From Bolinopsis microptera (Eukaryota; Ctenophora; Tentaculata; Lobata; Bolinopsidae), in contig NC_087084.1 in assembly GCF_026151205.1 (NCBI RefSeq), forward strand, positions 3,961,538-4,025,537: 64,000 bases of DNA, read 5' to 3'. A program made the translations under genes and the position numbers. The notes below the pieces were generated by a model. It searched no databases and was not told the DNA's origin. It worked only from the letters and a program-made list of their open reading frames with translations. This document shows, in pieces, positions 39,601 through 42,024 of the stretch (positions are counted from its first letter, which is position 1; the number at the start of each line of letters is the position of its first letter).

Positions 39601-42024
39601 ATGATATATATAATCAGCTTCATAATTTACTAACTAAGACAAAACACTAATGTGGGAATATAATTAATAAATAATAATCAGATAATCACACTTCCTCACT
39701 CCCCAGATTCCACCCTACCCAGTGAGTGGTCCTCAGTAGCTGACATTGCCCACTTCTTCAAACCCATGGTCTTTCTTAACTCGAGTTTCCTTACTACCCC
39801 TGATCTGGAGTCAACTAGTGATGCGCCCTTGTGTGAGGTATGTGTTTGTGCTGTGTGCTGTGTGCTGTGTGCTGTGTGCTGTGTGCTATGTGCCGTGTGC
39901 TGTGTGCTTTGTGCTGTGTGCTGTGTGCTGTGTGCTATGTGCTGTGTGCTGTGTGCTGTGTGCTGTGTGCTGTGTGATGTGTGCTGTGTGCTGTGTGCTG
40001 TGTGCTGTGTGCTGTGTGCTGTATGCTGTGTGCTGTATGCGGTGTGCTGTGTGTGTGTGATGTGTGATGTGTGCTGTGTGCTGTGTGCTGTGTGCTGTGT
40101 GATGTGTGCTGTGTGCTGTGTGCTGTGTGCTGTGTGCTGTGTGCTGTGTGCTGTGTGATGTGTGATGTGTGCTATGTGCTGTGTGCTGTGTGCTGTGTGC
40201 TGTGTGCTGTGTGCTGTGTGCTGTGTGCTGTGTGCTGTGTGCTGTGTGCTGCATGTGCTGTGTGCTGGCCTGGCGGCTGTGTTTACTGCAGTATGCCCAT
40301 GTGCCTTTTTGGGTATCTCCTGATCAATAATCATCTGCTAATTTTCTCTAGATTTTTCAGACGATAGAAGAGGAGATGTTAAGTGTAACATTCGAGAATA
40401 ACAAAATCCACTCATTTGACCCCAAGAGTTTCCTGGGAAGGTGGATTATTGAAGAAAATTTCTCCAATATTGACCAAAACCATGTCTACGGTTTGTTTAA
40501 TTTCAAACTATTATATTTATTTAATATTTATATACTTTTTAAATGTAGAATTATTCTCGAAAATGATAAATGTGGGGATGATGATTATGGAGCCGCCATC
40601 GTACTCGTCAAATCCGATATAAACTACAAATCAGACAGGAATTTGTAAACTTTAATTTCACAAGCATCTACTCAGCACTAATCCAAAAAACATTGCAGAG
40701 CTATCTCAGTTTGATTGTCGCAAAAAACGACCGTTTGAGGGTCTAGTTATTACAGATGAGGAACACAGCACTTATACAGTCCAAGTCCAGGTATAGTAAG
40801 AAAGAAACTATGTACCGTTCACATTCCTGCAGGAATATTAACGGTATCTTTTTTCTATCATCTTCAATTTTATTCCCATGATTTTTGCAATCATCAAGTC
40901 ATTCGGTATAAAACTAAAAGACAGGTAACCAGTTTTTCTATTCTGATGATTTTCCGTTTATCAAAGCTTTCTTTGGGAATAGAACTTTGAGTACCTCAAT
41001 CGTGTCTTGTGCCATCCAGAGTGACCCTGTAGTCATTCAAGAAAAATTCAGTCAAAACAGTGAAATTTGGGTCCCGGAAAGCTGAAATTCGAATATTTCT
41101 TACTGGTAGTATAGGACATATTCAAAATTTTCATTGCATCAAATTTTTCTCCGGATATACTGCTTCCAGTACCTTGATGGCGACTTGTGTCACTCTGATC
41201 GACCTCACTGATTGGTCACTGGTACAAATTTCAGTCAAAACCGCGAAATTTCGGTCAAGGGGACGGCAGAAAAGCTCTTCAAAAATCTTCCAAAATCTCT
41301 TTTTCTATAGGGCCCTTTTCTTATTAAACATACAACAAAAAGTTACATATTGCCATCCAATAGTAGTGTATATTATAACTAATAATAATTAATATATTAA
41401 TTCTTTCGCTGATCTTTACTAGTTTGAATTAAAAAGGCTACTATAAAAGTTTTAGTGTGATTATTTCAGTCGCTTCACGGAGTGTTGTCTGTGGGAAACC
41501 ACGAGAGAGTAGAGTCATTAGGAGACTCAACTCAAAGGAACCTCCGTCTCACTGGTAATATTAATTCTCACTTACTTTTACTTACTTACTTACTACTTAC
41601 TTACTTACTACTTACTTACTTACTACTCACTGGTAATATTAATTCTCACTTACTACTCACTTACTACTCACTTACTTTATACTACTCACTTACTTTTACT
41701 TACTTACTTACTACTCACTTACTTTTACTTACTTCGGTAGAAAATTGTCCCATTAATTCAAAAAGCTATCAACAAAAAGACACATAAACCGTCCAATATA
41801 TGGTTATTGGTTAGGTACTAAGGTCCAAATACTTATGATCCAAAGACCTCTTAACAATGATAATTACAGGGTCACGTGACGACCTCATGTTAGTTCTCGA
41901 GAACCTGACTTACTTCACGCCGTCTGATTATTCCGGACCAGAGCTGATAACTTTATCTGTGGAGCAAGACGGGGTTCCTGTTACCGTCAGTCTTATCCTC
42001 TACGTTACTGGCACTTGCTTGTAG
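11585..42024 (+). CDS. MTTP: Large lipid transfer protein, MTTP-like, 30 exons, with C-terminal CSPG/cadherin-like repeat
   Basis: Rebuilt by hand from GT/AG sites; all 30 exons stay open, consecutive phases match, and total coding length is 3,063 nt (about 1,020 residues). Order: signal peptide (MLYLITLLLA), N-terminal beta-barrel, helical repeats, beta-sheet region with the PTLSGLPL motif seen in vitellogenin/apolipoprotein relatives, then a C-terminal beta repeat. MTTP in animals loads lipid onto apolipoprotein B-type particles in the ER with PDI. Length (human about 894) and lack of a vWD domain favour MTTP over vitellogenin or apoB. Other large-lipid-transfer family members remain possible. 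Exon coordinates are in the four block entries that follow. Introns range from about 100 bp to 7.5 kb. Confidence 0.85.
12712..13897. mobile_element. 1.2-kb foldback element with TTAA target duplications
   Basis: The two halves are near-perfect reverse complements over several hundred bases, starting GGGGGCATACCCC and ending GGGGTATGCCCCC. TTAA flanks both ends (12708-12711 and 13898-13901). TTAA duplication is typical of piggyBac-type insertion, but no transposase is present and the end sequence is not diagnostic. It lies in intron 3 of the MTTP-like gene. Confidence 0.8.
14455..14690 (+). repeat. Tandem duplication containing the exon 4 splice donor
   Basis: About 100 bp from caaactggatacggtacgtg (14455) is repeated from 14588 with few differences. 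The first copy holds the last bases and donor of exon 4 of the MTTP-like gene; the second copy puts an identical donor context 133 bp downstream in the intron. Confidence 0.85.
16873..17116. repeat. Minisatellite of attaatcactaatcac units
   Basis: Imperfect 17-18-bp units (aattaatcactaatcacc or cat variants) run over most of 16873-17004 and again 17053-17116, ending next to the acceptor of exon 6. They form its upstream intronic context. Confidence 0.85.
19388..19815. repeat. Pair of direct repeats (about 165 bp) upstream of the nested receptor
   Basis: The segment from 19388 (gctgattgtcattgaaaagg) to about 19555 recurs at 19654-19815 with a few substitutions and a small deletion. The pair lies just before the signal-peptide exon of the receptor gene, possibly in its promoter. 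Confidence 0.85.
19876..24409 (+). CDS. LDLa-repeat 7TM receptor (GRL101/relaxin-receptor-like), nested in an intron; one frame break
   Basis: Exon 1 19876-19930 gives a signal peptide (MWLLLTQVLFCVPLA); exon 2 runs 20113-24409. Junction phase 1 agrees. The ectodomain has several LDL-receptor class A motifs (CNDKSDCEDGSDES, CDLVHDCDDNSDE, CDGHFDCLDLSDEC). TM1-2 are in the first frame; TM3 (SLKCSAVG, LFAMTGLSMVR) to TM7 (NSVINPLLY, the NPxxY motif) are in a frame displaced by one base. The switch is at about 22162-22166, consistent with one missing base between TM2 and TM3: sequencing error or a recent null allele. No leucine-rich repeats seen. Class A 7TM proteins of this type signal through G proteins; the ligand is unknown. 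A poly(A) signal AATAAA lies near 24837. Confidence 0.85.
23153..24393 (+). repeat. 17 x 72-bp coding minisatellite in the receptor cytoplasmic tail
   Basis: Seventeen 24-residue units of consensus VRQGNVTTGTAPQPTCLLVT followed by ADEE, then a partial unit. Variation is limited to G/E, T/K and few other positions, so the array is young or homogenised. Because 72 is a multiple of 3, all frames on both strands stay open; the long reverse frames here are by-products. Confidence 0.95.
24458..24541. repeat. 4 x 21-bp repeat after the receptor stop codon
   Basis: Four copies of actagaagcggttccagcaa+g lie 49 bp after the receptor stop, in its probable 3' UTR. Confidence 0.9.
24842..26237. other. 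Remainder of intron 7 of the MTTP-like gene
   Basis: AT-rich sequence with no further exon recognised. It separates the nested receptor from exon 8 of the host gene. Confidence 0.5.
26238..35999 (+). CDS. MTTP: MTTP-like gene, exons 8-16: end of barrel and helical repeats
   Basis: Exons: 26238-26292, 27229-27322, 28737-28825, 29085-29152, 32518-32607, 34188-34264, 34468-34630, 35392-35490, 35861-35999. The set resumes in phase after the 7.5-kb intron 7. Exon 14 carries GTAQLHLLAHN, like the helical region of vitellogenin-type proteins. Exon 16 carries VTTLGNMKLPEATRYLLDL, the LGN-type helical repeat of this family. Long introns hold microsatellites (27.3, 29.8, 32.9-33.6, 34.0 and 35.0 kb) and a retrotransposon fragment (27.99 kb). 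Confidence 0.85.
27154..27220. repeat. 12-bp tandem repeat (aaaacatgcact)
   Basis: Five to six copies of a 12-bp unit immediately before the acceptor of exon 9 of the MTTP-like gene; a short (GA)n lies at 27064-27088. Confidence 0.85.
27336..27540. repeat. Hexanucleotide repeat (ctttaa/ctttca)n
   Basis: About 200 bp of pyrimidine-rich hexamers, starting 14 bp after the exon 9 donor. The open frame of alternating F and N/H is a repeat artefact. Confidence 0.95.
27991..28130 (+). mobile_element. 5'-truncated copy of the 47.6-50.8 kb non-LTR retrotransposon
   Basis: Matches the last 150 bp of the full element (50633-50780: end of ORF with CNRCWENLF, then 3' UTR), with about ten differences and a short ATAAT tail. 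It is flanked by attcaa on both sides, a likely 6-bp target duplication. Located in intron 9 of the MTTP-like gene. Confidence 0.9.
29788..29895. repeat. 10-bp tandem repeat (atgagatttc)
   Basis: Ten to eleven copies of atgagatttc with single-base variants, in intron 11 of the MTTP-like gene. Confidence 0.9.
32951..33560. repeat. Palindromic block bounded by poly-G and poly-C
   Basis: A run of about 40 G (32951-32991) followed by gatcaggtacc is mirrored by a run of C at 33545-33560 then tggtacct. Several internal pieces (cggtactaactg, ccacccagtaccc) occur in both orientations. The centre (33290-33420) has runs of aaaa, cccc and gggg that look like poor base calls. It lies in intron 12. Confidence 0.6.
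34012..34080. promoter_or_regulatory. Tandem CRE-type palindromes (TGACGTCA) in an intron
   Basis: Four units of about 17 bp, gtgatgacgtcacgt; three carry a perfect TGACGTCA (the CREB/ATF consensus) and the fourth reads taacgtca. Located 108 bp before exon 13. Whether it acts as an enhancer or is just a repeat cannot be told from sequence. Confidence 0.5.
35036..35191. repeat. (GA)n microsatellite, about 155 bp
   Basis: Nearly pure GA dinucleotides with a few AAAG interruptions at the left end, in intron 14. Open frames of RE or SL repeats across it are artefacts. Confidence 0.97.
36120..38313 (+). CDS. MTTP: MTTP-like gene, exons 17-23: end of helical domain and beta-sheet region
   Basis: Exons: 36120-36193, 36482-36591, 36852-36953, 37215-37330, 37521-37645, 37807-37911, 38214-38313. 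Exon 17 (TPEVRKAAVETL) is the classic helical-repeat wording of this family. Exon 21 begins the beta-sheet part (GAELEFERFGGNG). Exon 23 contains IPTLSGLPLSYSV, matching the PT-x2-GLPL pattern of vitellogenin and apolipoprotein relatives. The donor of exon 18 reads CA/gtcagt; the rest are ordinary GT/AG. Confidence 0.85.
36211..36255. repeat. Perfect 15-bp-arm hairpin with a CRE in the loop
   Basis: cttgttttagatagg and its reverse complement enclose a 15-bp centre containing TGACGTCA. A third half-copy (gcttgttttagatag) follows at about 36273. In intron 17 of the MTTP-like gene. Confidence 0.85.
38493..39110. repeat. Octanucleotide satellite (aattaaat)n, about 620 bp
   Basis: About 75 copies of an 8-bp AT-only unit with a block of six gattaaat variants near 38683-38728 and three acaattaa variants near 38825-38845. 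Fills most of intron 23. Confidence 0.97.
39127..42024 (+). CDS. MTTP: MTTP-like gene, exons 24-30: C-terminal region with CSPG/cadherin-like repeat
   Basis: Exons: 39127-39278, 39486-39555, 39707-39837, 40352-40490, 40699-40790, 41470-41554, 41870-42024 (stop TAG 42022-42024). Exons 28-30 together read as a single beta-sandwich repeat: FEGLVITDEE start, HGVLSV, RLTGSRDDL, LENLTYFTPSDYSGPELITL, then a final strand before the stop. This is the pattern of CSPG4/FRAS1-type and bacterial cadherin-like repeats, not part of classical MTTP. A donor-like gtcagt lies inside exon 30 after GVPVT, so an alternative splice to a longer form is possible, but no downstream exon was found. Confidence 0.8.
39838..40255. 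repeat. 7-bp minisatellite (gtgctgt)n, about 420 bp
   Basis: About 60 heptamer copies with occasional gtgatgt or gtgctat variants. It starts directly at the exon 26 donor and fills intron 26. The 7-residue-periodic reading frames on both strands are by-products. Confidence 0.97.
41575..41740. repeat. Tetranucleotide repeat (ctta)n with short duplications
   Basis: Interrupted cttactta runs, with a duplicated segment tggtaatattaattctcac (41552 and 41630) that includes the exon 29 donor context. Confidence 0.85.

What the first reader, a model, noticed from the sequence alone, without database searches (positions are those of the whole stretch)
40699..42024. MTTP-like lipid transfer protein with a C-terminal CSPG/cadherin-like beta repeat
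Seen: exons 28-30, in phase with 27 upstream lipid-transfer exons, encode one complete repeat with ITDEE, HGVLSV, LTG, LENLTYFTP and SGPELITL. Known: this wording belongs to CSPG4/FRAS1 and bacterial cadherin-like repeats, usually extracellular adhesion proteins, and classical MTTP lacks it. Inference: a lineage-specific fusion, or a diverged MTTP C-terminus that converged on the pattern.
Basis: partly seen in the sequence, partly recalled or inferred. Interest (0 to 1): 0.7.

Follow-up and report, generated by a model that had tools for sequence, protein, structure and literature searches.

The report
Comb-jelly lipid-transfer gene with extra domain
A gene for a fat-shuttling protein in what appears to be a comb jelly carries an extra domain at its end of a kind otherwise found in long bacterial proteins, and a relative of that domain also sits in a human enzyme that builds membrane lipids.

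The parts
26238..29152 (+). N-terminal exons of the MTTP-like gene: 26238-26292, 27229-27322, 28737-28825, 29085-29152
   Evidence: Hand-picked open segments chained by in-phase GT-AG sites; no family match of note for this part
30926..32607 (+). Less certain exons 30926-30973 and 32518-32607; further barrel exons before 34188 are probably missing from the model
   Evidence: weak donor after 30973
34188..36953 (+). Helical-domain exons: 34188-34264, 34468-34630, 35392-35490, 35861-35999, 36120-36213 (donor uncertain), 36362-36440, 36482-36591, 36852-36953
   Evidence: Aligns to the human MTTP helical domain; below-cut-off Pfam HEAT_2 E 0.0012 and Vitellogenin_N E 0.017
37215..39837 (+). Lipid-binding-sheet exons: 37215-37330, 37521-37645, 37807-37911, 38214-38313, 39127-39278, 39486-39555, 39707-39837
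   Evidence: In-phase chain; alignment to the human MTTP C-terminal part z 3.0, 3 of 300 shuffles reach it
40352..40490 (+). Last MTTP-like exon ('27'); two possible acceptors (exon start 40352 or 40361); the human MTTP C-terminus aligns inside it
40699..40790 (+). Exon 28: start of the added cadherin-like/Big_9-like domain (LVITDEE, TYTVQVQ)
41470..41554 (+). Exon 29: HGVLSVG hairpin and following strand (RNLRLTG)
41870..42024 (+). Exon 30: counterpart of the short helix (RDDLMLVLE), NLTYFTPSDYSGPELITLSVE, last strand, stop codon TAG
   Evidence: the last codons overlap a minisatellite that starts at 42009

Best explanation
The gene encodes the ctenophore counterpart of the MTP large subunit (MTTP), a lumenal lipid transfer protein, followed by one extra beta-sandwich domain of the bacterial Big_9/Cadherin_5-like repeat family. 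Shown by computation: the exon chain and phases, the MTTP-like core, the family of the domain, and its position beyond the end of human MTTP. Inferred: the core takes up and hands over lipids in the ER as MTTP does, and the added domain is a protein-protein module in the lumen, for self-association or for holding a partner such as PDI or a lipoprotein chain near the membrane. The B4GALNT1 domain of the same fold lies in the intertwined dimer of a lipid-handling lumenal enzyme. Adhesion between cells is less likely for a protein of this family.
Against: No transcript was available, so the 27|28 join rests on phase and position. Its acceptor has a weak pyrimidine tract. The MTTP core is so diverged that Pfam MTP_lip_bd does not match it and no MTTP chain is found with it in the PDB. 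Similarity outside the helical domain is weak, and the cysteines of KTCEIDRYEKSCAL, which I first took for the helical pair of MTTP, are not aligned with the human pair. The window domain shows no direct pairwise similarity to human B4GALNT1 (z 0.1); the bacterial repeat itself reaches only z 2.6 against it (17 of 1000 shuffles as good). The first ~35 columns of the extended bacterial model are not matched, so the first strands are not shown. The docking role is inference from one structure.
Confidence: 0.55

Rival explanations
1. Exons 28-30 are a separate transcription unit or a rare splice form, and the main MTTP-like product ends in or just after exon 27.
For: No RNA evidence; the exon 28 acceptor is weak; intron 27 can be read through to a stop at 40646-40648.
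Against: Phase fits across 27|28; exons 28 and 29 hold no in-frame ATG; the long open frame downstream (43276-46152) is on the other strand.
Confidence: 0.1
2. The sequence converged: a diverged MTTP C-terminal sheet that only looks like a bacterial repeat.
For: The core is very diverged; curated family libraries do not list the domain.
Against: 34-40 bits with independent profiles, a 72-residue alignment with one gap to a bacterial repeat, no similarity of the domain to human MTTP (z 0.2, 115 of 300 shuffles as good), and the MTTP end lies before it.
Confidence: 0.04
3. The protein is not an ER-resident MTTP but another large lipid transfer protein that is secreted, and the domain mediates binding outside the cell.
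For: Several LLTP members are secreted, and long bacterial proteins with such repeats are usually taken for surface proteins (both recalled; the records themselves say hypothetical, cadherin-like or Ig-like domain-containing).
Against: Similarity is to MTTP rather than apoB or lipovitellin; Pfam lists no VWD domain in the spliced pieces.
Confidence: 0.2
4. Origin: the domain was moved by exon shuffling from a B4GALNT-like gene of the same animal rather than taken from bacteria.
For: Animals already have this fold in B4GALNT1; the domain is split by two introns and begins at a phase-1 intron.
Against: The window domain is much closer to a bacterial repeat (score 103) than to human B4GALNT1 (28, no better than shuffles). 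The search for a B4GALNT-like gene in the own genome did not complete.
Confidence: 0.3

Closest known systems
Microsomal triglyceride transfer protein large subunit (MTTP; human, PDB 6i7s/8eoj)
   Same: Helical-domain similarity; similar length of the core
   Different: Human MTTP ends where exon 27 ends; no added domain. Pfam MTP_lip_bd does not reach the window protein.
Bacterial cadherin-like / Big_9 (PF17963), Cadherin_5 (PF17892) repeats
   Same: Core of the repeat: acidic turn, G-L hairpin, LTG, short helix, LTY, YSG, last strand
   Different: In bacteria in tandem in long proteins, often with PVND-like linkers; here a single copy at the end of a lipid transfer protein, interrupted by two introns
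Non-catalytic domain of human B4GALNT1 (PDB 9h6j, residues about 130-257)
   Different: No direct sequence similarity to the window domain; different neighbour (a GT12 catalytic domain)
CSPG repeats (CSPG4, FRAS1/FREM; Pfam Cadherin_3)
   Same: General cadherin-like sandwich and HG-L element (recalled)
   Different: No family match for the window domain; weak fold match of the bacterial relative to a CSPG4 fragment

Membership tests
MTTP / large lipid transfer proteins | Sequence similarity to MTTP above chance | tested here: met
   Score 75 against human MTTP, 0 of 200 shuffles reach it; z 6.1 against 1.7 and 0.8 for apoB and lipovitellin; located in the helical domain
MTTP / large lipid transfer proteins | Match to curated models Vitellogenin_N or MTP_lip_bd above cut-off | tested here: not met
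   Vitellogenin_N 14.1 bits against cut-off 24; MTP_lip_bd not listed at E 10, whereas human MTTP scores 553 bits. I therefore call it MTTP-like
MTTP / large lipid transfer proteins | Lipid transfer, PDI partner, ER residence | not testable with these tools
   Sequence only
Bacterial cadherin-like repeat family (Big_9/Cadherin_5 type) | Significant score with profiles of the bacterial repeats | tested here: met
   34.5-39.8 bits with 17 or more repeats, controls at most 13.2; 30.6 with two repeats; not found with one
Bacterial cadherin-like repeat family (Big_9/Cadherin_5 type) | Match to Pfam Big_9 or Cadherin_5 itself | tested here: not met
   No Pfam family at E 10 for the window domain; the closest bacterial repeat L038 does match Big_9 above cut-off (25.6 against 23.6)
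Bacterial cadherin-like repeat family (Big_9/Cadherin_5 type) | Beta-sandwich fold of the window domain itself | not tested
   Spliced proteins do not fall under what structure prediction accepts; only the bacterial relative was folded
CSPG/FRAS1 repeats | Match to Pfam Cadherin_3 (PF16184) | tested here: not met
   No Pfam match at E 10
B4GALNT1 non-catalytic domain | Same fold as the bacterial relative of the window domain | tested here: met
   [not shown]
B4GALNT1 non-catalytic domain | Direct sequence similarity to the window domain | tested here: not met
   Score 28 against 27.5 +/- 4.8, 445 of 1000 shuffles as good

The most novel reading that the evidence does not exclude
A single repeat from a large bacterial protein was captured by a ctenophore MTTP gene, gained introns and became a lumenal docking module. 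The same ancient fold had already been used in the animal ganglioside enzyme B4GALNT1, so this domain would be a recurrent bacterial-derived partner module of lipid-handling proteins in the secretory pathway.
Probability: 0.2. Interest if true: 0.7.

Novelty: new variant of a known kind. Interest (0 to 1): 0.5.

Why it matters
[quoted passage not shown] An MTTP with an added domain there is either an ancestral architecture lost elsewhere or a gain within ctenophores, and both can be tested in a few genomes. The link of bacterial repeats to the non-catalytic domain of human B4GALNT1 would give that domain a family; the passages I saw of its structure paper say that searches with the full-length protein found no homologue of the overall fold.

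Tried and rejected
Curated libraries gave no name for the domain: NCBIfam at E 10, Pfam at E 1 and 10, phmmer against PDB (five rows, best E 0.031 to an unrelated 'H3 Protein', the others acyl-CoA hydrolases at E 0.96-1.4). A Pfam scan of three frames with X at stops over 33-42 kb gave nothing at E 0.1. The first bacterial lead was weak by itself (tblastn E 0.7); of its five records I opened two: L001 carries true repeats, L002 is a short frame that does not look like one.

The other hit in the own genome (C13:3859451, E 0.224) looked like a paralogue. It is part of a copy of at least 30 kb, with equal substitution rates in exons and elsewhere (150 of 2390 and 866 of 13866 aligned bases, over five aligned blocks) and 938 gaps, 705 of them one base. 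I read it as unpolished long-read sequence: the B. microptera assembly had gaps filled with TGS-Gapcloser (passages of PMC10232365). Against that, the same passage says the assembly was polished with Illumina reads, and it does not say which PacBio chemistry was used for this species. A decayed duplication is not excluded. The copy is no independent evidence and was not used.

Bacterial repeats as queries found nothing else convincing in the own genome: 0 matches; 4 matches, the best being exon 30 itself (E 0.183) and the others at E 3.8-7.9; frames from those three loci score at most 7.3 bits. These searches are weak for split genes. PF01347 and PF16184 in the own genome gave nothing, but nor did the control genomes, so this shows nothing.

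Paper searches for an MTTP of early animals, for this fusion or for ctenophore gene transfer gave nothing on it; held no paper, and of the others only capped listings were seen (20 of 32, 10 of 12, 8 of 710, 6 of 72). A find in the Mnemiopsis transfer paper PMC6005172 had no hit for triglyceride, cadherin, vitellogenin, lipid or Ig-like. I considered two cysteines (QFDC and GTC) as a possible disulphide but set this aside, because the last codons lie in a minisatellite.
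Full report
What was checked. The finding points to 40699-42024 on the + strand. The quoted peptide words are there. I chained hand-picked open segments by in-phase GT-AG sites from 26238 to the stop at 42024: 25 exons, 855 residues. The three last exons are 40699-40790, 41470-41554 and 41870-42024. The join from the preceding exon (ending 40490) is phase 1, the next phase 0, the last phase 1.

Where the window comes from. The genome that holds the window has 264,652,675 bases in 232 contigs. Contigs C1-C12 are 15.2 to 26.2 Mb, C14 and C15 under 0.2 Mb, and C13, which holds the window, is 16.35 Mb. 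The largest is 26,206,493 bases, and counted from these lengths half the genome is reached at the contig of 20,825,282. Table 1 of PMC11797021 (passages) gives Bolinopsis microptera 265 Mb, 13 chromosomes, largest 26.2 Mb, N50 20.8 Mb; its 346 scaffolds differ from the 232 here. I take the animal to be this ctenophore. This is inference from sizes.

The gene is MTTP-like. Human MTTP was taken as in PDB 6i7s. The spliced protein scores 75 against it, mean of 200 shuffles 45.0, best shuffle 61. Without the last domain the z is 6.1 against MTTP, 1.7 against apoB and 0.8 against lamprey lipovitellin, 150 shuffles each. The signal is in the helical domain (phmmer 137-333 against 301-500). The C-terminal sheets alone reach z 3.0, with 3 of 300 shuffles as good. 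Curated models are below cut-off: HEAT_2 19.5 bits of 27.7, Vitellogenin_N 14.1 of 24, and PDB searches with the spliced core list no MTTP chain. So 'MTTP-like' is supported, and 'MTTP ortholog' is likely but not shown.

The end of MTTP lies before the domain. In a global alignment of the C-terminal halves, the last residues of human MTTP align inside exon 27, and nothing of MTTP aligns with exons 28-30. The domain itself has no similarity to human MTTP (z 0.2). It is therefore an addition, not a rewritten end.

The domain is a true member of a known repeat family. tblastn of the domain in 72,556 plasmid records gave one sensible lead, a 36.5% match at E 0.7 in a very long deltaproteobacterial protein annotated as hypothetical; repeats from it match Pfam Cadherin_5 and Big_9, one of two above cut-off. 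A profile grown from this protein and four other loci scores the domain at 30.6 bits with two sequences, 39.8 with 17, and 36-39 in the later rounds scored; the best of 2000 shuffles and 1054 other window ORFs over these rounds is 13.2. Leaving out the first protein gives 35.3 bits with 29 repeats. A separate set, 17 bacterial genome loci found with an Azospirillum repeat, gives 34.5, 36.7 and 34.5 bits in rounds that reported 53, 80 and 95 repeats; the one-sequence start of that series fails (7.6 bits, behind four shuffles). The best single relative is a repeat of Azospirillum canadense (L038), score 103 against 31.5 +/- 5.8 in 500 shuffles, best shuffle 59; in a multiple alignment 29 of 92 aligned columns are identical.

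The splice pattern is supported by the domain. Exon 30 alone gives 14.7 bits, 29+30 27.4, all three 34.1 with one profile, and two other profiles behave alike; the best of 8000 random in-phase GT-AG triples of the window gives 11.2. This supports the joins 28|29 and 29|30. The join 27|28 rests on phase, on the lack of an in-frame ATG in exons 28 and 29, and on position: the next long open frame downstream is on the other strand. GC is 0.476 in exons 28-30 and 0.333 between model exons.

Fold. In the alignment, the strands from LVITDE onward and the helix RDDLMLVLE of the window domain have counterparts. The extended model's first ~35 columns are not matched in the window (28.6 bits for the rest).

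How it most likely works. [quoted passage not shown] its place in the ER lumen is recalled. I infer that the core does this here. No enzyme family was recognised in the added domain, and it belongs to a family of sandwich modules. The B4GALNT1 case shows such a domain in a lumenal, lipid-handling dimer. I therefore favour docking or self-association. This step is inference; I put it at roughly 0.35 alone, and the architecture at roughly 0.85.

Novelty. Six paper searches did not turn up a ctenophore MTTP or this fusion (capped listings of an open-licence library). It is a new variant of a known kind. Whether it came from bacteria or from an older animal domain is open: the domain is far closer to a bacterial repeat than to human B4GALNT1, but it has two introns, and the search for a B4GALNT-like gene in the same genome did not complete.

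Noticed in passing
[not shown]
   Followed up: partly
window 16356-46894 against G000:C13:3835001-3865000 (L011-L013): A second copy of at least 30 kb, blocks 80-88% alike, with nearly as many gaps (938, of which 705 of one base) as substitutions (1016) and no difference between exons and the rest; possibly raw long reads used to fill a gap.
   Followed up: partly
window 23150-24390: 17 copies of a 72-bp unit inside the open frame of a rhodopsin-type receptor gene, giving a tail of 24-residue repeats.
   Followed up: no
window 43276-46152 (-) and 52439-55952: A 959-codon open frame without Pfam match; a stretch similar to this region lies at 52439-55952, as both align to the same part of the noisy copy.
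   Followed up: no
window 47614-49776: LINE-like open frame with endonuclease and reverse transcriptase matches.
   Followed up: no
window 42009-42080: A 28-bp minisatellite begins at the last codons and stop of exon 30, so the very end of the protein may vary between individuals.
   Followed up: no
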